Positions 5,416 to 57,070 of a DNA stretch of 64,000 nt are shown here, one piece after another. The position numbers and the translations under genes were made by a program. Numbering within the stretch: the first letter of the stretch is position 1; each line of letters opens with the position of its first letter. The notes beneath the pieces were generated by a model. The model worked only from the letters and a program-made list of their open reading frames with translations, was not told where the DNA came from and ran no database searches. The DNA comes from Chitinispirillaceae bacterium. Its GTDB lineage: Bacteria; Fibrobacterota; Chitinivibrionia; Chitinivibrionales; Chitinispirillaceae. The DNA is taken from NCBI GenBank assembly GCA_016929415.1, contig JAFGIW010000045.1:1-64000 (forward strand). The letters run 5' to 3'.

Positions 5416-5781
5416 AGTGCGGTTCCTTTCGGAAGAAGTGTGAGAGCGTAATTGAAGACTAATATACACATTACGGCCGATCGGTGCAATTGAAAACAGG
5501 CCTTATATCCATGGGCATGGAACAACAAACACTCATGAAAAAGAGGTACAGTTTTGTATTATTCCGTTGTTGGGCATACCGGTTGAATTTTAAAACATTA
5601 CATTGGGAAGAACGGCCGTTAAACGCTTAAATGATTGACTCCTGTATCCGGATGGGGTACAATTATAAAGTTCTTCTCTACCGGTTTTTTTCAATGCAAA
5701 TCTAACCAGTTAACGGGCGGGTTGATTTTAAATGCGAGACTATACTGTTCTGTCGCATGCACCGGGGACCGACAACATCAT

Positions 5782-5804
5782 GACATCCCTCCCCTGTGGA
5801 TGTC
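5782..5804. promoter_or_regulatory. Inverted repeat GACATCC-N9-GGATGTC upstream of the giant surface-protein gene
   Basis: Perfect 7-bp arms, 9-nt spacer, immediately upstream of the Crp-like site. Confidence 0.45.
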
Positions 5805-5811
5805 GGAGATT

Positions 5812-5827
5812 TGTGACGGACATCACA
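5812..5827. promoter_or_regulatory. Crp/Fnr-family type operator TGTGACGGACATCACA
   Basis: Exact TGTGA-N6-TCACA dyad in intergenic DNA 85 bp upstream of the first ATG of the 2536-aa ORF (163 bp upstream of the likely start at 5991). Confidence 0.6.
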
Positions 5828-5990
5828 TTCTTTTAAACCGGTATGAGGGATAATTAAAAGGTTGTGTCCATTACGTGGTTTTCCATATTTCGGACTCTTG
5901 TAGGAATGTGCCATGCCTGAAGAAAATGTAAAGTGCGGTTCAACGGTCGAGAGCAGACGGACAGTGCCGGCCTGTATAAGTCAATTATCC

Positions 5991-8900
5991 ATGAAAAAGA
6001 GTCACTATTTTTTTCTGGTATGGGTGATTCTGTTGACTTTTATCGGATACCCCGCCGACTATTCCTGGGACAATTCCACTTTATCAGGCATCCAGACCGG
6101 CAACGGCATCTGGGGAATCAACAACTACTGGACTATTAACGGCATCACTCTGGTCTCCTGGCCGGGAGCGGGAGCCAGCGCCACGTTCGCCGGCAGCGAC
6201 GGTACCTACGCCATTACCGTCAGCGGCACGCAGAATGTGGACAGCATCACCTTTAAAAGCGACGGCTATACTCTTGCCACCGGCACCCTTGATTTCGGCA
6301 CCACGTCGGGCATTTGCGTGGACTCGAACAAGACCGCCGCAATCGGTTCAGTGATAAACGGAACAGGCGGGCTCTCCAAATACGGCCCCGGCACGCTCAT
6401 TATCTCCGGGACCAGTACGTTCACCGGTCCGACCGAAATCAACGGGGGGACGCTGATAGTCAACGGCAGCATCGCCGCCGGAAGTGCGGTTACCGTGAAT
6501 TCCAATGCGATCCTTGGTGGTGAGGGAACCGTAAACGGCGTTGTCACCGTTTCCGCCGGCGGCAGCCTGGCCCCCGGTTTCAGCGGGGCGGGAAAGTTAA
6601 CGACAGGCAATCTTTCACTCGGCGGTTCGTCGCTCATGAAGTACGAACTCGGCACCCTGTCGGACACCATCGCCGTCAACGGCAATCTCACTCTCGACGC
6701 AACAGTCGACATCGAGGCGGCGGCGGGTTTCGGCCCGGGAACGTATACGCTCCTCACCTATGTCGGAACATTGACATTGGTAAATGATGGGCTGACCATC
6801 GGTTCGACACCGGGAGGCTATGACTATACGATCACCGCAACCGCCGGTGAGGTGCGGGTTACCGTAACGCCGTTGACGGTGAAGCAATGGATCGGCGGAG
6901 CCGGAGATAATCGGTGGAACACCGCAGCCAACTGGAGCGGGGGAACCGTGCCGGTTTCGTCGGATTCGGTGGTCTTTTTATGGTCAGCCTATCCCTGCAG
7001 CCTTGACGTCGATGATACGGTGGAATGTCTGATGTTCGAGCCGGATTATGCGCAGGCGTTTTATTTTGACGGCAACAAACTGACCATTTCGAGGCGACTT
7101 TCGATCAATATTTCGGAAACAGTTATCGGCAACGGATCGGATACCATCTGCTTCGACGGCACCGGATCGCGGGAGTTTCGATCGAAAACGGGGATATTGC
7201 TTCCGACCGTTCATCAGAAAGGAACAGGGACGACGACGGTGGTAACGGAAGGATTTAGAGCGAGTAATCTGTATGTTACCGCTGGTGAATTCAATTTCGG
7301 GGAGGGGCTGGAAAGTACGGTTGACGGACTTCTGAAGGTTGATGGCGGATCGCTTAATATTAACACCAGTATGCTCTTGGCAGTGGGCGACGTTGATTTC
7401 AGTGGTGCCACAGCATTATTAGAAAGTAGCGGCGGGGCTCTTGTATTTCAGGGCGGGATGCAATTATTTATTCCGGGAAATGAGATCCCAAGTCCTCATA
7501 TTGTTAAAAACTCGTCAACAACGTTAACGGTAGCAGGAAACCGATTAATTACCGGCCGCCTCCAGATTATGTCGGGGCAGGTTACAATGGATACCGCGCT
7601 TTTCGCCGATACCGTGTATTTGTCGACCTCCCTTGAGGCATTACAACTTGATACAGCGGAAGGCAATATCGATACGATCAATTCGTTGCAAGGGTATGGT
7701 ACGATAAACTTCGGCAAGACGGACCTGCATATCTCGAAGTCGGTTGATTTGAATGGATTCAATAGCGTCGGGGGAACGGGCAATCTCACGTTTATCAATG
7801 CCGACGTGATCGATTTTACCCCGAAGACAGGATTTTCCTTCCAGAAAATAGAAATGTCGGGATCCGGAACAGTAAGGGTCAACAATCTTCTGAAAAGCAC
7901 AGAGATGTTTATTCATGAGGGAACCTGGGATTGGTACAACTCTGGAATAGATACGGTTACGGATACTATCGGTATCTCCGGCGGGACGATGAAACTGTCA
8001 ACTTCCATGGTCTATGCAAAAAAAGTAACAGGCAGTGGAGGCACCCTGCGGTTTAATACCGGTACTTTAACCATTTTCGGCGATACCGGCCGGGTGCAGC
8101 TCAGTGCACTTTCCACTGTTTTTCCGGATACCGGTTTATTGATTTTCAATGGTACCGGTGTATCGACTTTCGAATTTCAGCAGAATCCGGCACAGGTGTA
8201 TCCTGTCATCAGAATTGAAGGAAATTCGGCAGATACGGTACGCATGATGTCTAATTTAAATGCGAAGTGTTTACGCCAGATAAGCAGTACGCTCAAATGG
8301 GGGAGCGGATTATTGCATACTGTTGATACCCTCGATGGTATTGGCGGGGCAATGGATTTCGGCAGTTCGATTGTAACGGTTACTGTGGGCAAAGCAAATT
8401 TGAGCAGCCTGTCCGGTATCATATCCGGGACCGGCGAGATTTCTTTTTCCGGAACTGCCGGTACCCAGGTCCTCACGCCGCCGTCTGCGCTCTCCTGCCC
8501 TATTATCAATAAAGCAGGGACAGGAACCGTGCAGTTAAGCTCCAATAATCTGACCTGCAAGGGGTTGTCGATAAGTGAGGGAACATTCGATTTCGCCGGC
8601 AAGAATGCAACAATCAACGGTGATTTGACTGTTGTGAACGGATCACCCGCGACATTTAACGGGCTCGACGGCGTAACGGTATCGGTATCCGGCAACGCTT
8701 CGCTTGCCGGACAGAGCGGCAACCAGCTCAACCTCGATCCTTCAACAGTATTGAATCTGAACGTCACCGGCACCCTTGAAGCTGATTACGCGACAATTGC
8801 CAATTGTAACGCAGACGGTGCGACCGGCCAGGCAACCGCAACCTGCGTCGATAATGGCGGCAATACCAACTGGTACTTCATCCCGCCTGATGTCACTCCA

Positions 8901-38862: not shown

Positions 38863-39702
38863 TTATTCGTCGCTGCCGTTTTTTGTCCGGCTTACGGGAA
38901 AAAGGTTCACGGTAATCTGAATCGCCTGTTCCTGCATATCGTCCATGCGTGCGATTTCCATCAGATCGCGCTGCAATTCACGTATCTTCAATTTGTAAAG
39001 CTCGACGGTTTTTGTCGACACGGAAAGTGTAGTTGAGTTCGATAGCCGGTTTTTTATAGGGACGTTGTCATATGCCCTGATAGCCATCCGCAGCATCTCC
39101 AGTTGAAAACGCTCGATCTGGAACGACTGGAGTGGGGCCGGGCGCCCCAGAATCAGATTGTTTGTTTGATGATAAAGCCCTTTTTCATCCCGTTCAAGAA
39201 ACCCGAGCCTTTTCAGCAGCACAATGGATTCCTTTGCCTCACGAGCTGAAACGGGAGGGATAAGAAATGAGCCCAAACGTGCGAAATCATCCTGGAAATT
39301 TACTAATGTCGCAACCTCCCGTATAACACTGTGATACCATTTTGAATAATATTCATAACGGTCGGCTTCAATATTCTGAATATCAATGGGACGCCTGATT
39401 TCAATGAGCCTGCTGTAATAATGTGTCTTCTCGTTGATCGTTTTTGCCTGATTGAAAAAGGCCAGGTTTTCAAAATATTCAGCCTCTTCAGGGGAATGGC
39501 CGATCGCCTGAGAGATTTTCAGTACACTGCTCTCCGTTAAATTCCGCTTGTTTTCTATGACATAATAGAGAAATGAGGGGGTATTGACCCCGGCCTTTTT
39601 AGAAAAATACCGGTAAGAAAAATTCTTTTTAAGAGCTTTTTGCTCATCATAGTAATTTTTCAGGTATGTTCTGAAGTCCTGATATTCGAAGATATTCGGC
39701 AT
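38863..39702 (-). CDS. TIGR02147-family protein (Fibrobacter-type paralogous family, XRE-like N-terminus)
   Basis: 'MPNIFEYQDFRTYLKNYYDEQKALKKNFSYRYFSKKAGVNTPSFLYYVIENKRNLTESSVLKISQAIGHSPEEAEYFENLAFFNQAKT'. Confidence 0.85.
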   Translation of the reverse strand: MPNIFEYQDFRTYLKNYYDEQKALKKNFSYRYFSKKAGVNTPSFLYYVIENKRNLTESSVLKISQAIGHSPEEAEYFENLAFFNQAKTINEKTHYYSRLIEIRRPIDIQNIEADRYEYYSKWYHSVIREVATLVNFQDDFARLGSFLIPPVSAREAKESIVLLKRLGFLERDEKGLYHQTNNLILGRPAPLQSFQIERFQLEMLRMAIRAYDNVPIKNRLSNSTTLSVSTKTVELYKLKIRELQRDLMEIARMDDMQEQAIQITVNLFPVSRTKNGSDE

Positions 39703-42313: not shown

Positions 42314-42934
42314 CTATGGAACCGTTATCGTCACCGTGTCCTGAACACCCGGATCGATCGTGATGTCCCGTTCCGTTACAATCGGAACCCCATTGTCGGT
42401 CGGTAACGGCGTTGAAGCGCGCAGGTCGATTTTATAGGTTCCTTTTGGAACGAGGTGGATCGATGGTGACGTACCCGATGCGGTTGTATAATAAAAGGGC
42501 GAACCCCGGATCATCAGCTCAACCTTTGTTTCCGTTGCTTCCATCGGCTGGTTGAGGACGATCGTGCCTGTCCCCGTCAACGTGACGGCGCCGACCGTCG
42601 TATCGGCGGGAAGATCCGGGACATGGACGCCTTGACGTTTAAGCGTATCCCAGACGAACAGATTGTAACGGTTTTCCCTCGGCGGATCGAAATGGAATGC
42701 TCCGCTGGCGTCGACAAACGTCGTTCCCGCCACGCCTATGCCCGAATCGGGACGAAAGTCGACCGAATAGATCGCCGCGATGACCTGCGGTCCTTCCCCC
42801 TGCCAATCGGGAGCGCGCGCGACCATCCCCGAGATCCCGTTGGTCGTTTCGGTGCCGCCTCCCGCCAGTCGGCCGGTGCAATGAAGCAACGCAAGGGGAA
42901 GACCGGCGAGTATTACAAACGAGATCCTCCTCAT
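42314..42934 (-). CDS. Lipoprotein (GGGTETTNG type)
   Basis: Lipobox-like 'AGLPLALLHCTGRLAGGGTETTNGISGMV'; ATGA overlap with the upstream TIGR02147 gene. Confidence 0.7.
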   Translation of the reverse strand: MRRISFVILAGLPLALLHCTGRLAGGGTETTNGISGMVARAPDWQGEGPQVIAAIYSVDFRPDSGIGVAGTTFVDASGAFHFDPPRENRYNLFVWDTLKRQGVHVPDLPADTTVGAVTLTGTGTIVLNQPMEATETKVELMIRGSPFYYTTASGTSPSIHLVPKGTYKIDLRASTPLPTDNGVPIVTERDITIDPGVQDTVTITVP

Positions 42935-43764
42935 TGCCGATCTCCCCGGTGCGATTGCGAAACAGGAAACAGATGGATATTCAAATGGTAGATTCGGTCG
43001 GCAAAGTTATCGGCCCGCGCGATTTCAAGCACTTCCTTGCGGAACTGTTTCGCCCGTTCGCTGATGGCTTCGAGCGACTTTGACGATATGCTCAGTGTGC
43101 AGGTCGAAATGTCCCGCTGCTCTTTCGGGGTCGTCCGTATGGTCCTGCCGGCGAGGTCGGCCATGGCGATTTGGAACTGTTCGATTGCCACGGATTTCCA
43201 TGCTTCGCCGGTGCTGATGACCGCATCGGTTTGTTCGTAGCAGCCGTCGGGATTCTTTGTGATAAGACCGAGCTTCTCAAGAACGGCGATTGCTTTCTTT
43301 GCCTCACTTTCCTTGATGGCGGGAATCACCATCGAAGCCAGTTCCTTGAAATCGCCGTAGAACGGATAGAAATTGAGCAGATCTCGAATGACGACATAAT
43401 ACCAGGTACTGAAAAGCTCGTACTGCTCCGGAACGAGGTTTTTACCGCCGGTCTGTTTCATAGAGATGAGCTGTTCGAAGAAATATTTCTTCGCTTCATG
43501 CGTTACGGCCTGGTTGAATTGCACGAGAACTTCAAAATAATGTGTTTCCTGCTTCGTCATCTTGAAGAGCCGGGCAAAGGCAATGGCGCTTTTCATGGAA
43601 ATGTTCGTTTTTCCCTGGAGGATCTTCGTAAAAAAACCTGCGGAGGAGAAACCGACCTTTCCGCCGATATAACGGTAAGAGAAGAGCGAATTGGCTGATT
43701 TGCGTTCCTGATAGATATCCTGCAGGTATTTCCGGTAATCGAAATAGTCATAGATGGAAATCAT
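42931..43764 (-). CDS. TIGR02147-family protein
   Basis: 'MISIYDYFDYRKYLQDIYQERKSANSLFSYRYIGGKVGFSSAGFFTKILQGKTNISMKSAIAFARLFKMTKQETHYFEVLVQFNQAVTHEAKKYFFEQL'; paralogous to 38863..39702. Confidence 0.86.
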   Translation of the reverse strand: MISIYDYFDYRKYLQDIYQERKSANSLFSYRYIGGKVGFSSAGFFTKILQGKTNISMKSAIAFARLFKMTKQETHYFEVLVQFNQAVTHEAKKYFFEQLISMKQTGGKNLVPEQYELFSTWYYVVIRDLLNFYPFYGDFKELASMVIPAIKESEAKKAIAVLEKLGLITKNPDGCYEQTDAVISTGEAWKSVAIEQFQIAMADLAGRTIRTTPKEQRDISTCTLSISSKSLEAISERAKQFRKEVLEIARADNFADRIYHLNIHLFPVSQSHRGDRQ

Positions 43765-47030: not shown

Positions 47031-48113
47031 TTATTCGATTACCATATATTCGAGAATGCCGGGTATGCCGACATCGCTTTTATAAAATTTAACTTCCGCG
47101 CGGTAATAGTATACCGTCGGCGCACCGATTACCAGTTTAATAATTGTGCCGAGAATAGGTCCAAGCTCGTCTATGAAGGAGTAACGGCACAGCGGCTCGC
47201 GTGGTATGACAATGAACGAACTGTCATGAGCCGACACTTTCCGCAGAAACGGCATTTTGTATTTCCTTTTCCGTGCGTCGATTTCAAGTTGAATACCCCT
47301 TATCGAAACAGGCTCCCGATCGGGACTTTTCCATATCCATCCCGTGATTGGAGCCTTTTCTTTCGGGGGAGGAAGCCGTATGTTCGCATTGAAACCATGA
47401 TGTGCATCGTATCCGCGGAACGTGAGCCAACCCCGACAGATATCGGACGGAAAGGAGGTCGAACGGGAACTTTCAAGCATTGCAAATGCATCCAGCTGCC
47501 GGGAGGCAATGTCCTTTCGTTTCAATTTTACCCGCGCGGGCATCCAGCGTATCGGAATCATGTACCTGAAAAACCGGCCTTTTACGGTTATTTCAGCATC
47601 GGGCGGGACTACTGCCTCAGGCGTACTTTCGAACAGAACCTCAACCAGCATTTTGTCGTCACCCGCGGTAACCCTTGTCTCGCCGTTTTGCACCGATATC
47701 TCATTCGGTCCGATTCGAAGCGCGTGTTCATCAGGATCGGACACATAACTCCACTCGGCTTTACCGTACTTTTTATTCCAGATTTCAGGCCTGTTCGCTC
47801 CGGAAAGGAAGATGATTTTGCAGGCCCCGTTCCGGTCGCTGATACCGAGATTGGTCAGTATGAACTGGACCTGAATCAATGAACTGTCGTTAAACACCGC
47901 CGTGAGCGTGTGGATTTGAGTAAAGCTTTTACTCTTGACAAATTGTGGTTCGAGCACATCAACGGACGGCCGTACCAGGGATGGGTTTAACAGCATGCAT
48001 AAAATGGGGAAGTAAAGAAATGCGAATGGCGATGCGAGTGAACTTTTATTGAAATTGCCGTGACGCGGGAGCATTCCGAAGAGATATTTATGGTTTGAAT
48101 TGATGGTGTTCAT
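47031..48113 (-). CDS. Hypothetical protein (exported or membrane N-terminus)
   Basis: Continuous ORF with protein-like composition ('FILTNLGISDRNGACKIIFLSGANRPEIWNKKYGKAEWSYVSDPDEHALRIGPNEISVQNGETRV'); hydrophobic stretch 'FAFLYFPILCMLLNPSLV'. Divergent from the methyltransferase. Confidence 0.6.
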   Translation of the reverse strand: MNTINSNHKYLFGMLPRHGNFNKSSLASPFAFLYFPILCMLLNPSLVRPSVDVLEPQFVKSKSFTQIHTLTAVFNDSSLIQVQFILTNLGISDRNGACKIIFLSGANRPEIWNKKYGKAEWSYVSDPDEHALRIGPNEISVQNGETRVTAGDDKMLVEVLFESTPEAVVPPDAEITVKGRFFRYMIPIRWMPARVKLKRKDIASRQLDAFAMLESSRSTSFPSDICRGWLTFRGYDAHHGFNANIRLPPPKEKAPITGWIWKSPDREPVSIRGIQLEIDARKRKYKMPFLRKVSAHDSSFIVIPREPLCRYSFIDELGPILGTIIKLVIGAPTVYYYRAEVKFYKSDVGIPGILEYMVIE

Positions 48114-48174
48114 GGGTTGTGATGGCCGAGCGCGTAGGGCTACGGGTTGGTCGGGGGTGGAGTGTTGGGAACGG

Positions 48175-48230
48175 TGGGCAAGTGTGAACTGCCCATTTCC
48201 CGAAACCACTTGTCGAAGTTCTGGGCAAGT
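48175..48230. promoter_or_regulatory. Three TGGGCA half-sites upstream of the methyltransferase (one dyad, one direct copy)
   Basis: TGGGCA-agtgtgaac-TGCCCA at 48175-48195 and TGGGCAAGT repeated at 48175 and 48222. Confidence 0.4.
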
Positions 48231-48292
48231 TGTACATTATTACAGAAGGATACATCATTGCAGAATCCATGTCTCTTTCTGGGGAATCCCAA

Positions 48293-51190
48293 ATGAAAAA
48301 TAGCAGGTTGGTAATCGAAACAACAACGAAAAAGAAGAAGGCGCTTGACTACGCGCTGAAGGACCGCGGGACGACTTTGACCGAGTGGTTCAATGACAAA
48401 GTGGCTGAAATAGCGGTTGAATATGAGGTGCAGGATTCGACCGCTGCAACCGAGCTGGAAACCTTGTCCGAGCTCGAAAGCAGCTCCGAGATACTGCGTA
48501 GACTGAAGGCCATAGACTGGGATTTCACGGATTCTGATACAACATTCCTTACGCACGGGATTCACCCATACCCGGCAAGATTCATTCCTCAGATTCCGAA
48601 CACCCTAATACGTATGCTGTCGCTCCGCGGAGAGACCGTATGGGACCCATTCGGAGGCTGTGGCACAACGGCCTTGGAGGCAATACGCCTCGGACGAAAT
48701 GCTCTAAGTACAGACCTGAACCCGATTGCCGCTTTGATTGGAAAGGCAAAGTGCACTACGATTTCTGCGGATGATTACGATGAGATTGAAAGGCTCGCGG
48801 ACAGGATAAGACTAATAGTCAGCTCACAAGAAGGACTAGACGAACTGCATGCCAACTCCGCGCAATATGAGGACTATATTCCGCGCATCCCAAATATCGA
48901 GAAGTGGTTTCATCACAATGCAGTAGCGGAGCTTTCCTATCTTCTGCATGCCTTCAGTGGAATCAAGAGTGAAGAGTTCAAGAACGTGGTCCGTGCGGCT
49001 CTTTCGAACATCATTGTAAAGGTTTCGTTCCAGGACAGTGAGACAAGGTATGTAAGCAAATCCCGGCAGGTCGAGAAAGGGGCTACCCTCAGACTATTTG
49101 CTGCCCAACTACTTGCAACAGCGATGAAGATTCGTAATCTTTCAAGCAGCCTTCGTTTCCGCCATGCATCCTTCGAGACCGTGGATCTTCGGAAGACAGA
49201 TAGCATAGGCACTGGTACATACGACCTTGTAGTAACGTCTCCACCATACCCGAACGCCACGGATTATCACCTTTACCACAGGTTCAGGCTATTCTGGCTC
49301 GGATTTGACCCCGCGAAAATGGCCTCGGCAGAAATTGGTAGCCACCTAAGACACCAGAAGCAAAACACAGGTATGGACGAATACCTTGATGAGATTGAGA
49401 GCAGTTTGCGGATAATCCATAAGGGGATTCGTCCGGGCAGAATTGCCGTGCTTGTTCTGGGTGACGGCGTCTTTCATGGGAAGACCTTTGATACAGCGGA
49501 CGCTGTGCGCAATCGGGCGGAGGGTGTAGGGTTTGAAGCGATTGGCATTGTACCAAGGAAAGTCCACTCGACCAAACGCTCATTTATAAATGCGGCACGC
49601 AGACTGAGAGAAGAGAAACTCCTGATTCTTCGGAAGCCCCGGGAAACCGTCCGATTCACATTGCTTAACCCTCCTTATCGGCTTTGGCCCTATGAAGATG
49701 TGCTCAGAAAAAAAGAACTCGGAAGGATGGTGCAAGATGCGGAAATCCGCCAAAACAACGGAACTACATCATTGGTCGCCGACACGCTAGACATAGAGAA
49801 TTTAAGACGGCTGACATTTACGCACGGGTACTGGGCCAGCGAATACACGCGAGAGTCTACTTGGCAGGCAGTACTTGAAAACGGCGATGCGTTCAAAAAC
49901 AATGGAAGGAAGAAAGATCCCAAATACGTTACTCACGGTATTCACGAGTATAAGGGGAAGTTCTATCCACAACTGGCAAAAGCGCTGTTCAACATTGGGG
50001 AAGCGAAGCTTGGGGGTACAGTGCTCGACCCGTTTTGCGGTAGTGGCACAGTTCTGCTTGAAGCCGTGCTGAACGGAATGCACGGATATGGCCTTGACTT
50101 GAATCCACTTGCTGTCAAGATTGCGCGTGCAAAGGCCGGAATTCTCTCTCTGGACCCGACTTTGGTCGACAAGGAGCTTTCTCGCATGATAGGGGAATGC
50201 CAGAAGCTCAAGCCGTCCAAGGACCACATGGTGGTATTCCTTGAAGAAATCGTGTCCGAGCTACATTCTTGGTTTCCGGAACCAGTTCTGGCGAAAATGG
50301 CACCAATACTTGAATACATTCGGCAGCTCGGGGAGCCCCTCCTCCAGGATTTCTTTGAAGTATGTCTTAGCAGCATCGTAAGACAATGCTCACAACAAGA
50401 ACCGAGAGATCTAAGAATCCGGAGAAGGAAGACGCCAATAGATGATGCTCCAGTGTTCGACCTGTATGTCCGAAAGCTAGTAGAGCAAAGAGAGAGACTT
50501 AGAAGATTCGCAAAAAGCCAATCCCGTTGTCCATTCAGTCTTGGACAAGCCATACCCATGCTCGGAGATTCTCGACACGATGTGGATTTGAGACGGGTTG
50601 GTCTTGAAGGCGAGGAGGTCGATTTAGTGGTCACCAGCCCCCCTTACGCCACAGCTCTACCATATATTGACACTGACCGCCTAAGTATGCTCCTGCTCTT
50701 CGGGATGAAATCTGTGGAACGAGCTGGAATTGAAAAAAGCCTAGTTGGTTCAAGAGAAATCGGCAAGCGGGAGAGGTTTGAGCTTGAAAAGATGTTCGAG
50801 GCGCAGGGGGAAAGGGGCCTTGTTTCCAAAGAGGCACAAAACACAATAGACAGAGTACTCAAGCTCAACAGAAAAGGGAATGCCGGATTTCGTAAGCAGA
50901 ACATGGCGGCTTTGCTCTACCGCTATTTCACAGACATGACCAAGGTAATGAAGAATCTGGATGCGGTCGTGAAGCGGGGCGGGTCACTGTTCTTTGTCAT
51001 CGGTGACAACAAGACGACTGCGGGAAAGGAACTCGTTTCCATTCGCAGCGGACAAGTGCTGCAGGAGACTGGGCGTTGGCTGGGCTGGAAAGTCGAGGAG
51101 GTTATCTCGATTACGGTAACGCAAGAGAACAGACTTCACAACAAGAACGGCATCACAGAAAACGAGATAATCTGGTTTCAAAAGCCATAG
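48293..51190 (+). CDS. DNA methyltransferase with two fused beta-class (probably N4-cytosine) MTase domains and an RHH-like N-terminus
   Basis: Two SAM motifs ('VWDPFGGCGTTALEAIRLGRNALSTDLNP', 'VLDPFCGSGTVLLEAVLNGMHGYGLDLNP') and two catalytic TSPPY motifs (49235-49249 and 50633-50647). N-terminus 'RLVIETTTKKKKALDYALKDRGTTLTEWFNDKVAEIA' resembles ribbon-helix-helix. Confidence 0.9.
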   Translation: MKNSRLVIETTTKKKKALDYALKDRGTTLTEWFNDKVAEIAVEYEVQDSTAATELETLSELESSSEILRRLKAIDWDFTDSDTTFLTHGIHPYPARFIPQIPNTLIRMLSLRGETVWDPFGGCGTTALEAIRLGRNALSTDLNPIAALIGKAKCTTISADDYDEIERLADRIRLIVSSQEGLDELHANSAQYEDYIPRIPNIEKWFHHNAVAELSYLLHAFSGIKSEEFKNVVRAALSNIIVKVSFQDSETRYVSKSRQVEKGATLRLFAAQLLATAMKIRNLSSSLRFRHASFETVDLRKTDSIGTGTYDLVVTSPPYPNATDYHLYHRFRLFWLGFDPAKMASAEIGSHLRHQKQNTGMDEYLDEIESSLRIIHKGIRPGRIAVLVLGDGVFHGKTFDTADAVRNRAEGVGFEAIGIVPRKVHSTKRSFINAARRLREEKLLILRKPRETVRFTLLNPPYRLWPYEDVLRKKELGRMVQDAEIRQNNGTTSLVADTLDIENLRRLTFTHGYWASEYTRESTWQAVLENGDAFKNNGRKKDPKYVTHGIHEYKGKFYPQLAKALFNIGEAKLGGTVLDPFCGSGTVLLEAVLNGMHGYGLDLNPLAVKIARAKAGILSLDPTLVDKELSRMIGECQKLKPSKDHMVVFLEEIVSELHSWFPEPVLAKMAPILEYIRQLGEPLLQDFFEVCLSSIVRQCSQQEPRDLRIRRRKTPIDDAPVFDLYVRKLVEQRERLRRFAKSQSRCPFSLGQAIPMLGDSRHDVDLRRVGLEGEEVDLVVTSPPYATALPYIDTDRLSMLLLFGMKSVERAGIEKSLVGSREIGKRERFELEKMFEAQGERGLVSKEAQNTIDRVLKLNRKGNAGFRKQNMAALLYRYFTDMTKVMKNLDAVVKRGGSLFFVIGDNKTTAGKELVSIRSGQVLQETGRWLGWKVEEVISITVTQENRLHNKNGITENEIIWFQKP

Positions 51191-52420
51191 TCAGAGCCAC
51201 CCGAATTTCCTTGGTTGCGCTTTTCCACCAGATGGCAGAGTCTGGTTGCAGACTGCGAGGTACTCGTCATATTCTTGGCTGCCCGGTGCGAATACATCTA
51301 TGTCATAGTCATATGACGCTGTTGAGTCTGGCTGCCGCATGACGAGGATAGAGTAATTTGGGGCGTTTCTGATAACATCTTGTGGTACTGTGATTCTGAT
51401 TTCGTGTTTGAGCGAGTAGTACACCGTATTCAATCCGAATGCACCATGCCCTGCACATACGTTTCCTGCGGAATCATACACACTAATATTCACCACTGGG
51501 TCTGGGGTGCGCTGAAAGTAAGGGGTGTTCTTGTCAAATTTAGGCTTTGTCCTTCCTTTGAAGGGGTAGCCAAAAAACTGAGGATTCTGGTTGACTGCTA
51601 TTTTACTGAGTAATATCTCTCCATTGTGATGAGGAAATACTTGTATCACAAGTGTCCGCGAGTAGCTTAATGTGGATTCTGCGGCCTTTGTGGTCTTGCG
51701 CTTTCCCTTCTTTGCCGCAGCCTTCGGCGTTGCCTTTTTCGCTGACTCTTCTTTCGGTATTGGGCTGGGCGGGATCAATTTGATATGAGGGAATTTCCCA
51801 AGAGGCTGCCACTCCGCCGTACGCGTCTTGCCATGGTTGGCCGTTTCACCTTGGCGGTTCTTTGTTTCGTCAGCCAATCGGCCCTTCTCTGATAATTCCA
51901 GAAGTGTTTCCGCGTTGAGGTAGAAAGAACACCTCTGTGCATCGTCCCAAATGGCCCTAATATCAGCGACCAGTCTTTCGTTTTCTGGGACACTGCCCTT
52001 TAGCTGCGTGAAGGTTTCGAAGTTAGTTTCCAACCCGCCTATGGTGAGGTTATTCGACCCTATAAATGCGTTGAAATCGTTTGCGCCGTCAAAGAGATAG
52101 ACCTTCGGATGGAACGTTATGTTCATTCTGCTCTCTGAACCTGCTATGCGGCATGTATCGAAATTCTCAAGTGCAAAACGAAGAGCCTGTTCACTTGTTC
52201 CCTTGGCATCTATCCCGATTATTGCCTCAATAGTCTTTCCCTTTCTTCGCCAATCTTGAAACGCCTTCTTCAATCGAACAAGCGGGCCCAGTTTCGCAAA
52301 GGCCACAATCATCCGCAGTGATTCGTAGGCATCTTGTGACAGACAGTCTGCGATTATACGCATCAAGCGAGACGTTCCTGTGGGTTGGTCCGTAGGTTTA
52401 AGAAATGAAATATGTGCCAT
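51191..52420 (-). CDS. PLD-family (HKD) restriction endonuclease-like protein
   Basis: 'FHPKVYLFDGANDFNAFIGSNNLTIGGL' (HxKx4D, motif at 52088-52111); K/A-rich linker (51671-51757); separate ~150-aa C-terminal domain. Convergent with, and 1 bp from, the MTase stop. Confidence 0.8.
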   Translation of the reverse strand: MAHISFLKPTDQPTGTSRLMRIIADCLSQDAYESLRMIVAFAKLGPLVRLKKAFQDWRRKGKTIEAIIGIDAKGTSEQALRFALENFDTCRIAGSESRMNITFHPKVYLFDGANDFNAFIGSNNLTIGGLETNFETFTQLKGSVPENERLVADIRAIWDDAQRCSFYLNAETLLELSEKGRLADETKNRQGETANHGKTRTAEWQPLGKFPHIKLIPPSPIPKEESAKKATPKAAAKKGKRKTTKAAESTLSYSRTLVIQVFPHHNGEILLSKIAVNQNPQFFGYPFKGRTKPKFDKNTPYFQRTPDPVVNISVYDSAGNVCAGHGAFGLNTVYYSLKHEIRITVPQDVIRNAPNYSILVMRQPDSTASYDYDIDVFAPGSQEYDEYLAVCNQTLPSGGKAQPRKFGWL

Positions 52421-53202: not shown

Positions 53203-54654
53203 TTAATCCATTCCTTTACGCTTCACACTCCAGTTGGAATGCTTGCAGAGGTGACAGTCGGCACCGTAGAACCACGAACGATACTCCTCATCACCCATAA
53301 GATGATAACGGAACCAGGCAATCGCGGCCTGAACCACATCGTGCGGATTGGTCTTATCTGACAGCATCATTTCAAATCCCCAGTTGCCGTGATCCGCGCT
53401 AAGACATTTACCAAAGAAAACCGGCACGCCGCTGGTTCCGTTGTAGGCGTCCGTAGGATGATCTTCACAACGCGCACCGCTGTACGTATCCTTGCCGCCG
53501 CATATGATGAAGGCCGGTCCTTTCTGATTTGGTGATCCGACCGCACCGCTTATGGATACCGATGTCTTGATAAGCGGGTTCTGGCCGGCTTCACTGGCGC
53601 CATAGCCACCCTGAGAATGACCCGACGCACCGATTTTGTCGGTATCGATTTTCTGATACAGAACATTTGACGAATTATTATTCTGTTTTACCACCCATTC
53701 CGCGACCTGGACCATCTTATTCCTGAACTGGTTTCCTGAATTCCCCCCATCCTGGACATTTCCGGCGGTGCTGGCGATAACCACAAAACCATGTGAGGCC
53801 ATCATGTTAAGTACAGTGGTGTAATTGGATGGACTCCCCCCGGCGCCATGACCCCAGGATATGACTGGATAAAGACAGCCGGTAACCATATCTTTAGGCC
53901 GATATAAAACCGCTCCCTCAACGTTTTCGGAAACAGTTTCGAACGGTCCCTTTTTGGATACATCCGTGGTTGCCCACTTTCCTCCGTTACATGGTCCATT
54001 ACTCTCTTTCTGTAATGTAATTTCCATGTTTTCAATCTGGTAACCGTTAATATCAACTGTTTTGGTGACGTACCCATCTTTCCTTACTTTCAGTTTATCC
54101 CCGTCCTGCTGTGCCTGTTTTGTCAGCAAGGTTCCATTTTTGCCGGAAGGAATGTTGCCGGAAAAATTGAGGTAGAATGCAGGTCCGATGGAGATTAATT
54201 TGCGATTGGTTGAAATATTTCCGATGGTTATAGACAGCATATAGAATCCGGGGCTGAGTACAGGAAGGGTGACATGATGAGTCTGTGCCGTCAGATTATT
54301 CATCGGGATATGCATAACTCTTTGTCCACCTCCATTATAGAGAGAAAACGCTCCTTTTTCCGCATAGCGTGAGAGGGTAAAATAGAGTGATGTTCCCCGG
54401 ATTCCCATCCGGACATCATTTTTTAAATGCAGATTGGAGGGAGCAAGGATGGCAGTGGTGGTGACGAGTTTGAATGCCCCATCAGCTTCGGTAGTGTCGA
54501 CCATTGTCGAATCACTCACCAGGCTTACTATTGCGCCCGCGAGCGGATCTTTGCCGTCAGTAACGGTTCCGGTAATTGAAATATCGGGTTTGGATGCGAA
54601 AAGGACCGTAGCTGCCAGTGCTACAATACTTAACCAATTATGTACAACCATCAC
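53203..54654 (-). CDS. Secreted alpha/beta hydrolase (PETase/cutinase/chlorophyllase-like) with N-terminal CarboxypepD-reg-like domain and internal sorting-like module
   Basis: 'DISITGTVTDGKDPLAGAIVSLV'; 'YPVISWGHGAGGSPSNYTTVLNMMASHGFVVIASTAGN'; 'IGASGHSQGGYGASEAG'; 'ADHGNWGFE'. Confidence 0.82.
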   Translation of the reverse strand: MMVVHNWLSIVALAATVLFASKPDISITGTVTDGKDPLAGAIVSLVSDSTMVDTTEADGAFKLVTTTAILAPSNLHLKNDVRMGIRGTSLYFTLSRYAEKGAFSLYNGGGQRVMHIPMNNLTAQTHHVTLPVLSPGFYMLSITIGNISTNRKLISIGPAFYLNFSGNIPSGKNGTLLTKQAQQDGDKLKVRKDGYVTKTVDINGYQIENMEITLQKESNGPCNGGKWATTDVSKKGPFETVSENVEGAVLYRPKDMVTGCLYPVISWGHGAGGSPSNYTTVLNMMASHGFVVIASTAGNVQDGGNSGNQFRNKMVQVAEWVVKQNNNSSNVLYQKIDTDKIGASGHSQGGYGASEAGQNPLIKTSVSISGAVGSPNQKGPAFIICGGKDTYSGARCEDHPTDAYNGTSGVPVFFGKCLSADHGNWGFEMMLSDKTNPHDVVQAAIAWFRYHLMGDEEYRSWFYGADCHLCKHSNWSVKRKGMD

Positions 54655-55806
54655 GATTCCCCCTTTTAATGAATTTAACAGTGGAGTTTTTGCCGAAATG
54701 ACTATATATCCATAATATAGTTAAGAACGAGGGGGTATATTGAAGCAGTACCATTCCGGTGGAAACAAGAGCTTCACCATGATAGAGGCGAATAAGCAGG
54801 GGCTGCGGTGCGACGGATGCGAGGTGCAGCGAAGAAACGGCTCCAACTTCACGGAGGCAGCGGCCGGAAAGGGAATAGAGTGCGACGCGGTCGTAGGGAA
54901 CCGCGGCGGAAATGAAGAGGATGGAGTGACAAAGTCTATAGCGGACGTAAAAAAACACGGGTGTTGAACCGGAATCGGTTTTGTTCCGCGTCATTTCAGT
55001 ATGAATATTGACTGAAGCTATGCTCCTGCACACTCGTGCTCCGGCGGTCAGGAAACCGCCGCCTACGAACAGGGTCGAGTCTGAAATTGCCAACGCGTTC
55101 ACGACGCCGTTGGTTCCCAGGCCAAGCCTGTTCCATGCGGTGCCGTCCCAGTAGAGCAGATGGTCTACCAATTTTCCGTTGACCAGAGCTCCGGTGCCGC
55201 CGCCGGCGAAAATCGTTCCATTATTGGCGCAGGCAAGCACGCAGGTATAGTAGAGTCCTGGTGATCCGAGCGATGTCCATTGGGTTCCGTTCCATTTTGT
55301 TACGTTGCGTCTGTCGCCCGCATAAATAGTGCCGTTTCTATCATATGCCAGGCATCTTACTACGTCGGGTGCTTGTCCGATCGCGCTCCAGTCGCTGCCG
55401 TCCCACTTTGCTATGTTCTTTACTTCTGCACCGCCCGCAGCGCTGAACACACCGCCGGCAAAAATATTCCCGAGCCGGTCACCGACAAGAGAGAATACCG
55501 TGTCCCTTGGATCGTACATTCCCGCCTTGAGCCGGCTCCAGGTAACACCGTCCTTGCGATATAGGCGGCCGAAGCATTGCCGGCCTGAGTGAAATCTCCG
55601 GCTATATATAACTGACCGTTATGAAAGAGGAGCGTGAAAATAGGGCCGTTCGTCCCTACTATGCCTCCGCTGTTCAGGACTTCCCAATCCTCATCCGTGC
55701 ATAATTGGCTTAAAGGAATAGAAGCCGCTGCAGCCGCACTGAAGTTTGACAGTGCGAAAGAAACAGGCACAATACAAAACCGGATTATTTGCCGGAAATC
55801 AGCCAT
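54638..55806 (-). pseudogene. Frameshifted exported repeat (galactose-oxidase/propeller-like) protein
   Basis: 55420..55806 gives signal peptide + 'FTLLFHNGQLYIAGDFTQAGNASAAYIA', then the pattern continues only in another frame ('KDGVTWSRLKAGMYDPRDTVFSLVGDRLGNIFAGGVFSAAGGAEVKNIAKWDGSDW...'). The break is near 55550-55562. Confidence 0.65.
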
Positions 55807-56005
55807 ACAACGGGTTCCTGCCTGGGGAAGGGACGAAACGACCGATTGCAGTTTTATTATATAAATCGAAACGATTTTATTCTTACTCCATGACTTTATT
55901 ATTTGAATTTCGATATTGGCATCATTGAGACAATTGTCATGCCGTTTCGCATGATTCGACTATCAAACACGGATCACGCCGAGGAACATCCCGCCCACTT
56001 CAGGC

Positions 56006-57070
56006 TCACTCTTTTACATGCATCTCAAATGTGATGATGGAAGAGTCGCTGGACGACACTTTCGCAGTGAATGCGTAGGAAACAATCGCTTTTTGGGAAA
56101 GAGCGGCTTTAAAAGGTTCAACGTTTCTTTCAGGAATGACGATTCTCAGTTTGTAATAGTCACCGTTATGTTCAAGGATTTTATCCAGGCGGCCCCCAAA
56201 GGAACCGGCGAGACCTGATATCATTCCGATCCTGTTCGATACCGCCGGCTGATGGTCGGATCCGTCAGTTCGTGATGAACGGTCTGACCCGTCATGCGAT
56301 GAGGTGCGTGAAGAACGGATGCCCGAACCCGCATTTCTGCCGCCGGTTCTCTGTACAACCCCGTTGTTTACGGGTTCGTAGAATATCGTTGTCTTGTCAA
56401 GGTCACCGATTTCGTCGTGAATCACTTCGTCTCGGATATCGGAGACATCGCTTCTGGCGACTGCGTGCGGAGAGGGGAGCGATGCGGCAGGGGGACGGTT
56501 CCTTTTCCCCGAAATCGTTTCGGACAGCCGGTATGGCGACGTGGGGGAAGGCCCCGTTTCCCGATGCAGTGCCGAAGCATCATTTTCCGCATGCCGTCTC
56601 ATCGAGGAACTTTTGTCAAGTTTTTTTGTGTAAGGTATGACAGCGGCATCAGGTTGCCGCTTTTCAGCATGAACGGTAAGGCTTTGTTCGGATTCGATAC
56701 GATTGGCGGAATGGTTGCCGCGCGCCCCTTCGGGCGCAACTCCGGAAATGGGGTGATCCCCATCTTTTTTCCACTGTCTTTCGTACAGGATATGATAGCG
56801 CTCAACGGAAAAAAAGATAATCATGACGATAGCGGAAAACTCAATCGGAAGTTTCAGGCGGTACGGCCGGAACAGCAGATTGAACAGCTTCCTGCTTATC
56901 AACATGCGATTACGCGCATTCGCAAAGAGCCTTGTCGAGGACAATGCCGCATCGATCTCCTTATCGGTGCCGGATGCGACAGGCCGCAACGAATGATCCC
57001 TGTCGGATAATCGATCATGGTCCTTTCCGGCAGGCGGCAATGATTTGCCCTTGAAACCGCGGTCACTCAT
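56006..57070 (-). CDS. Hypothetical single-TM protein
   Basis: Long ORF; 'KEIDAALSSTRLFANARNRMLISRKLFNLLFRPYRLKLPIEFSAIVMIIFFSVERY' resembles an anti-sigma-like juxtamembrane segment; C-terminal 'YYKLRIVIPERNVEPFKAALSQKAIVSYAFTAKVSSSDSSIITFEMHV'. Confidence 0.5.
   Translation of the reverse strand: MSDRGFKGKSLPPAGKDHDRLSDRDHSLRPVASGTDKEIDAALSSTRLFANARNRMLISRKLFNLLFRPYRLKLPIEFSAIVMIIFFSVERYHILYERQWKKDGDHPISGVAPEGARGNHSANRIESEQSLTVHAEKRQPDAAVIPYTKKLDKSSSMRRHAENDASALHRETGPSPTSPYRLSETISGKRNRPPAASLPSPHAVARSDVSDIRDEVIHDEIGDLDKTTIFYEPVNNGVVQRTGGRNAGSGIRSSRTSSHDGSDRSSRTDGSDHQPAVSNRIGMISGLAGSFGGRLDKILEHNGDYYKLRIVIPERNVEPFKAALSQKAIVSYAFTAKVSSSDSSIITFEMHVKE

What the first reader, a model, noticed from the sequence alone, without database searches (positions are those of the whole stretch)
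48175..52420. Compact two-gene R-M island: tandem-fused N4C-type methyltransferase convergent with a single-HKD PLD nuclease
Seen: one polypeptide carries two complete beta-class MTase modules (two DPFxGxGT SAM motifs, two TSPPY motifs). Its stop at 51190 abuts the stop (51191) of a convergent gene encoding an HxKx4D...GSNNLT PLD nuclease, a K/A-rich linker and a separate C-terminal domain. Established: the BfiI/NgoFVII type pairs a metal-independent PLD catalytic domain with a C-terminal B3-like DNA-binding domain, and BfiI uses two N4C MTases because its site is asymmetric. Inference: this is a rearranged BfiI-type system in which both strand-specific MTases are fused, predicting an asymmetric recognition site.
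Basis: partly seen in the sequence, partly recalled or inferred. Interest (0 to 1): 0.8.

Follow-up and report, generated by a model that had tools for sequence, protein, structure and literature searches.

The report
BfiI-like restriction system with fused methyltransferases
This is a compact bacterial DNA-defence cassette of the BfiI kind, a DNA cutter convergent with its protective enzymes, in which the two protective enzymes that relatives make separately are joined into one protein; it is a new variant of a known kind, not a new kind of system.

Summary
One 965-986 aa ORF (+) carries two complete SAM-methyltransferase modules, and its stop abuts that of a convergent 409 aa PLD nuclease. 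The reading as a BfiI-type restriction-modification system is mostly supported. Relatives of the methyltransferase include separate M1 and M2 genes next to true BfiI nucleases (Pfam BfiI_DBD, E about 1e-70). A family profile of the window's nuclease hits solved BfiI in both the PLD and the C-terminal DNA-binding domain, and Foldseek of the predicted model ranks BfiI first. Thirteen cassettes from many phyla carry M1+M2+PLD with M1 and M2 separate; only the window's are fused, with no linker and no ATG or GTG where M2 should begin. One related cassette has swapped its PLD domain but kept the C-terminal domain with its methyltransferases, marking that domain as the target recogniser. Corrections: motif I precedes motif IV, so the modules are not beta-class; the 'D' of HKD is not conserved (signature HxK...SxN...NxE); tail-to-tail order is common in this family, not a rearrangement. 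Fused methyltransferase pairs for asymmetric sites are known elsewhere (AlwI, FokI, MhoVII). Target site, 4mC and metal independence are untested.

The parts
48293..51190 (+). Fused DNA methyltransferase gene M1-M2 (965 aa from ATG 48293; the ORF can be read from TTG 48230, 986 aa)
   Evidence: GGGGAA lies upstream of ATG 48293
48293..48490 (+). N-terminal extension of the fused methyltransferase (helical, unassigned). BfiI-type and co-directional relatives have nothing here; several convergent relatives carry a MerR-type HTH
   Evidence: RHH-like by eye only, no HMM support
48494..49637 (+). M1 module: motif I DPFGGCGT at 48644-48667, motif IV TSPPY at 49235-49249
   Evidence: (PDLC03364, residues 85-469)
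49638..49663 (+). M1/M2 junction: no linker, open frame, no ATG or GTG in frame where M2 of relatives starts (TTG 49661 only)
49658..51190 (+). M2 module: motif I DPFCGSGT at 50027-50050, motif IV TSPPY at 50633-50647
   Evidence: (PDLC03377, residues 477-986)
51188..51193 (.). Abutting convergent stop codons of the methyltransferase and nuclease genes
   Evidence: homologous cassettes overlap by 4-10 nt
51191..52420 (-). PLD-family restriction endonuclease gene, 409 aa
51926..52369 (-). PLD catalytic domain (residues 18-165): H104, K106, S122, N124, N133, E135 present, as in all 18 nucleases compared, BfiI-type included
51668..51856 (-). Low-confidence K/A-rich linker (residues 189-251)
51194..51667 (-). 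C-terminal B3-like (BfiI-type) DNA-binding domain (residues 252-409)
   Evidence: family profile against PDB 3zi5 E 2.7e-5 and 2c1l; Foldseek 3zi5 E 4.5e-5, TM 0.61 of target; hhalign with the BfiI-type family E 4.9e-14 overall

Best explanation
It is a BfiI-like Type IIS restriction-modification cassette. The PLD nuclease probably works as a homodimer: two N-terminal HxK domains form one active site, and each C-terminal B3-like domain reads one copy of a short, probably asymmetric site, so DNA is cut a few bases away. The single methyltransferase polypeptide carries two different modules, the fused equivalents of M1 and M2, each predicted to modify one strand of that site at N4 of cytosine, so both strands are protected by one protein. 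Shown here: gene structure, homology of all functional domains to BfiI-type cassettes, intact catalytic motifs, and the fusion. Inferred: dimerisation, metal independence, cutting position, 4mC and asymmetry of the site.
For: M1 and M2 halves align full length with separate M1 and M2 genes that sit beside nucleases carrying Pfam BfiI_DBD at E 2e-70 to 5e-75. The Rhizobium anhuiense plasmid has the same layout with M1 and M2 as two genes. The nuclease family profile hits BfiI 2c1l (E 5.7e-15, both domains) and the DNA-bound BfiI C-terminal domain 3zi5 (E 2.7e-5); Foldseek ranks BfiI first (E 4.4e-13) and 3zi5 sixth. The catalytic signature is conserved in 18 of 18. All ten genome loci whose nuclease shares the C-terminal domain lie beside an M1 or M2 homologue. 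In L147 the PLD domain is replaced (25-32% identity) while the C-terminal domain (62-66%) and M2 (52-63%) stay conserved, as expected if the C-terminal domain and the methyltransferases share one specificity. BfiI has two methylases acting on opposite strands (PMC4267653).
Against: The window nuclease alone does not match Pfam BfiI_DBD and is only 22-40% identical to relatives in the C-terminal domain. Its AF2 model has mean pLDDT 60 and parts of the C-terminal domain are below 50. No activity, site or methylome is known. The window's lineage is a long branch of unresolved position.
Confidence: 0.84

Rival explanations
1. The fusion is a sequencing or assembly indel, or is translated as two proteins by re-initiation, and the organism has separate M1 and M2 as in all relatives.
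For: Every other cassette found has separate genes, often overlapping by about 4 nt, so one indel could join them. The genome is a draft of 227 contigs, 90.8% complete. A TTG lies at 49661, near the expected M2 start.
Against: Frame 0 is open across the whole junction and has no ATG or GTG where M2 should start; the other frames stop nearby and offer no plausible M2 start upstream of the TTG. Homology runs to within a few residues of the junction on both sides.
Confidence: 0.12
2. It is a CglI/NgoAVII-type ATP-dependent system, in which the PLD-B3 protein needs a helicase partner.
For: Same nuclease architecture; NgoAVII R protein 4rct is matched by profile and by fold. Pfam RE_NgoFVII is just above its cut-off.
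Against: That system has a 5mC methyltransferase and a DEAD/Z1 ATPase gene (PMC4267653). No such gene lies beside the cassette in the window, and the partner here is a pair of TSPPY methyltransferases. BfiI scores much better than NgoAVII.
Confidence: 0.04
3. The nuclease is a stand-alone PLD defence nuclease that only happens to lie next to a solitary fused methyltransferase.
For: PLD nucleases also occur in DISARM and other systems, and weak DrmC and PbeA profile hits exist.
Against: The pairing recurs across many phyla, chiefly with nucleases that share this C-terminal domain.
Confidence: 0.03

Closest known systems
BfiI / BmrI Type IIS R-M (ACTGGG 5/4)
   Same: PLD HxK catalytic domain plus C-terminal B3-like DNA-binding domain; two methyltransferases homologous to M1 and M2 of BfiI-type loci; no helicase
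   Different: M1 and M2 fused into one chain; nuclease too divergent for Pfam BfiI_DBD, so a different site is likely; convergent instead of the M1-M2-R order of three of the four BfiI-type loci seen here
Unnamed convergent M1-M2/PLD cassettes (R. anhuiense pRA_T24_3 L002; L048, L049, L050, L053, L055, L147)
   Same: Same domains, same tail-to-tail layout, stops mostly overlapping
   Different: Separate M1 and M2; most have a MerR-type HTH at the N-terminus of M1; methyltransferases 30-38% identical to the window's
AlwI, FokI and MhoVII fused methyltransferase pairs
   Same: Two methyltransferases in one chain, one for each strand of an asymmetric site (PMC4081073, PMC12898733)
   Different: MhoVII is shown to be N6-adenine (FokI and AlwI too, from general knowledge), and none is paired with a PLD nuclease; here both modules carry TSPPY and are N4C-like
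CglI / NgoAVII
   Same: PLD-B3 nuclease
   Different: 5mC methyltransferase and an obligatory ATPase partner, absent here

Membership tests
BfiI-like Type IIS R-M | PLD HxK nuclease domain, one motif per chain | tested here: met
BfiI-like Type IIS R-M | C-terminal B3-like DNA-binding domain | tested here: met
   family profile and fold match 3zi5/2c1l; single-sequence Pfam BfiI_DBD not reached
BfiI-like Type IIS R-M | Two methyltransferases of the M1/M2 families | tested here: met
   both motif sets intact
BfiI-like Type IIS R-M | No ATPase or helicase subunit | tested here: met
   neighbouring ORFs 47031-48209 and 53203-57070
BfiI-like Type IIS R-M | Asymmetric site cut outside it | not testable with these tools
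   needs methylome or cleavage data
BfiI-like Type IIS R-M | Metal-independent cleavage | not testable with these tools
   needs biochemistry
BfiI isoschizomer (Pfam BfiI_DBD, ACTGGG) | BfiI_DBD above gathering score | tested here: not met
   no match, whereas L039, L040, L041, L065 match at E about 1e-70
Beta-class N4C/N6A methyltransferases | Motif IV before motif I | tested here: not met
   I at 139 and 600, IV at 336 and 802; the modules' N-terminal motif I aligns with the C-terminal motif I of beta-class structures
CglI/NgoAVII | ATPase N-protein and 5mC methyltransferase in the cassette | tested here: not met
Fused double methyltransferase (AlwI/FokI/MhoVII-like) | Two complete methyltransferase modules in one open frame | tested here: met

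The most novel reading that the evidence does not exclude
The first fused N4-cytosine M1-M2 enzyme of the BfiI family, and a living example of the tandem-fusion intermediate proposed for circular permutation of DNA methyltransferases (the proposal is from general knowledge): joining two I-to-IV modules puts motif IV of M1 in front of motif I of M2, which is the beta-class order, and the beta-type Pfam model in fact bridges residues 332-632 across the junction.
Probability: 0.25. Interest if true: 0.55.

Novelty: new variant of a known kind. Interest (0 to 1): 0.4.

Why it matters
Few PLD restriction enzymes have been characterised; BfiI/BmrI and the NgoAVII/CglI group are the main studied ones. 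The set collected here is a broad family of M1+M2+PLD cassettes with divergent B3-like readers, likely with different sites and metal-independent cutting. One member has exchanged its catalytic domain while keeping its reader with the methyltransferases, a natural example of modular Type IIS design. The fused methyltransferase gives a single-gene modification partner and a case for studying how motif-permuted methyltransferases could arise.

Tried and rejected
Single-sequence searches of genome and viral collections with the window proteins found nothing; alignments were needed. No match to the nuclease in phages. A joint alignment of M1 and M2 rows with the fused protein collapsed M2 onto M1, so the modules were aligned apart. 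A ribbon-helix-helix N-terminus was suspected by eye, but Pfam, NCBIfam and PDB sequence searches gave no support, so it is left unassigned. Promoter and terminator scans gave no more than shuffled sequence. The tree does not resolve whether the window is nearest to BfiI proper or to either of the other two clades (bootstrap 48). A wider survey of other phyla by genome handle was not possible.

Full report
Observation. The window holds an ORF on + at 48230..51190 (986 aa from TTG; ATG 48293 with an upstream GGGGAA is the likelier start, 965 aa) and a convergent ORF on - at 51191..52420 (409 aa), so the two stop codons abut. Pfam finds N6_N4_Mtase (E 9e-30) in the first. Two separate PADLOC Type II methyltransferase models cover residues 85-469 (E 4e-81) and 477-986 (E 1.5e-89) almost end to end, that is, one model per half. 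Motif I (DPFGGCGT, DPFCGSGT) is at residues 139 and 600, and motif IV (TSPPY) at 336 and 802. The nuclease hits RE_NgoFVII just above its curated cut-off and PLDc_2 just below.

Correction on class. In both halves, and in M1 and M2 of every relative in which both motifs were found, motif I precedes motif IV by about 180-205 residues. In beta-class enzymes the order is IV then I (established knowledge). Profiles of M1 and M2 match the C-terminal motif I region of beta-class structures with their own N-terminal part. So the modules are permuted relative to beta-class. One side effect is that the best stretch of the beta-type Pfam model runs from motif IV of M1 to motif I of M2 (332-632).

Relatives of the methyltransferase. 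In its own phylum one other genome (G004) has M1 and M2 as adjacent separate genes, followed by a 360 aa PLD protein. Methylobacterium indicum and Roseibium aggregatum plasmids have the same M1-M2-PLD order. All three PLD proteins match Pfam BfiI_DBD at E 2e-70 to 5e-75. A viral-collection contig (L065) has M1-M2 with a convergent BfiI-type nuclease. The methyltransferase halves are therefore of the BfiI M1/M2 families, at about 30-32% identity to the BfiI-type loci and 30-38% to the other cassettes.

Relatives of the nuclease. The Rhizobium anhuiense plasmid pRA_T24_3 carries the same layout as the window: a 409 aa PLD protein tail-to-tail with two separate methyltransferases, 33% and 35% identical to the window's halves. 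An alignment of the two nucleases found 17 loci in bacterial genomes. Every one of the ten whose nuclease shares the C-terminal domain has M1 and/or M2 beside it: L048, L049, L050, L053, L054, L055, L057, L058, L060, L061. L057 is cut by the contig end and L061 has M1 only. Of the seven without it, only L051 has an M1-like neighbour, and several of these are cut by contig ends. Some cassettes are convergent (L002, L048, L049, L050, L053, L055, L147), with stops overlapping by 4-10 nt in all but L048; others are co-directional (L054, L057, L058, L060). Tail-to-tail order is therefore common here. In no case are M1 and M2 fused: thirteen complete separate pairs were seen (L002, L039, L040, L041, L048, L049, L050, L053, L054, L055, L058, L060, L065); L146 closely resembles L053 and is not counted. 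The window is the only fused case found, within the limits of these collections.

C-terminal domain. The window nuclease alone does not reach Pfam BfiI_DBD. The family profile hits BfiI 2c1l with E 5.7e-15 through both the PLD region (i-Evalue 3e-7) and the C-terminal region (1.7e-4), and the DNA-bound C-terminal domain 3zi5 with 2.7e-5. A profile-profile comparison with the BfiI-type family aligns both regions (E 4.9e-14). The AF2 model is of modest quality (mean pLDDT 60.5), but Foldseek ranks BfiI first (4.4e-13) and 3zi5 sixth (4.5e-5, TM 0.61 of target).

What the C-terminal domain does. In L147 the PLD domain is only 25-32% identical to those of its convergent relatives, while the C-terminal domain is 62-66% and M2 52-63% identical. 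This is what one expects if the C-terminal domain and the methyltransferases share one target.

Active site. H104, K106, S122, N124, N133 and E135 are present in all 18 nucleases compared, including BfiI-type ones.

Fusion. Frame 0 is open across the junction. Homology to M1 ends and homology to M2 begins within a few residues, and there is no ATG or GTG where M2 should start, only TTG 49661. The assembly is a draft (227 contigs, 90.8% complete), so an indel cannot be excluded. In one chain the two modules would modify both strands of an asymmetric site. BfiI has two methylases for opposite strands (PMC4267653), and joined pairs are known for AlwI and some Type IIT systems (PMC4081073), for FokI and for MhoVII (PMC12898733).

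N-terminus. Residues 22-88 have no counterpart in BfiI-type or co-directional M1. Several convergent relatives have a MerR-type HTH there (Pfam E 1e-7 to 1e-9). The window's extension is helical in the model but matched no family. Autoregulation of the methyltransferase gene is a possibility only.

Verdict. A BfiI-like R-M cassette with a fused M1-M2 methyltransferase and a divergent PLD-B3 nuclease: a new variant of a known kind.

Noticed in passing
L147 5683-9016: Natural domain swap: PLD domain replaced, C-terminal reader and methyltransferases conserved.
   Followed up: partly
window 48234-48265: Direct repeat ACATTATTACAGAA / ACATCATTGCAGAA, period 18, just upstream of ATG 48293; a possible operator or chance.
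   Followed up: no
L002, L049, L050, L053, L055 (M1 N-termini): MerR-type HTH fused to M1 in convergent cassettes, absent in co-directional ones; suggests autoregulation where M and R are transcribed separately. Pfam was run on L049, L053 and L055 only; L002 and L050 by sequence likeness.
   Followed up: partly
L061 4280-8041: Cassette with M1 and PLD but an unrelated 368 aa ORF (5481-6587) in place of M2; M1 lacks the usual C-terminal end.
   Followed up: no
L065 4743-8538: Viral-collection contig with M1-M2 and a convergent BfiI-type nuclease.
   Followed up: partly
window 38863-39702 and 42931-43764: Two DUF4423 proteins on the same strand a few kb apart.
   Followed up: no
window 47031-48209: 392 aa ORF divergent from the methyltransferase with no Pfam family above cut-off.
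   Followed up: no
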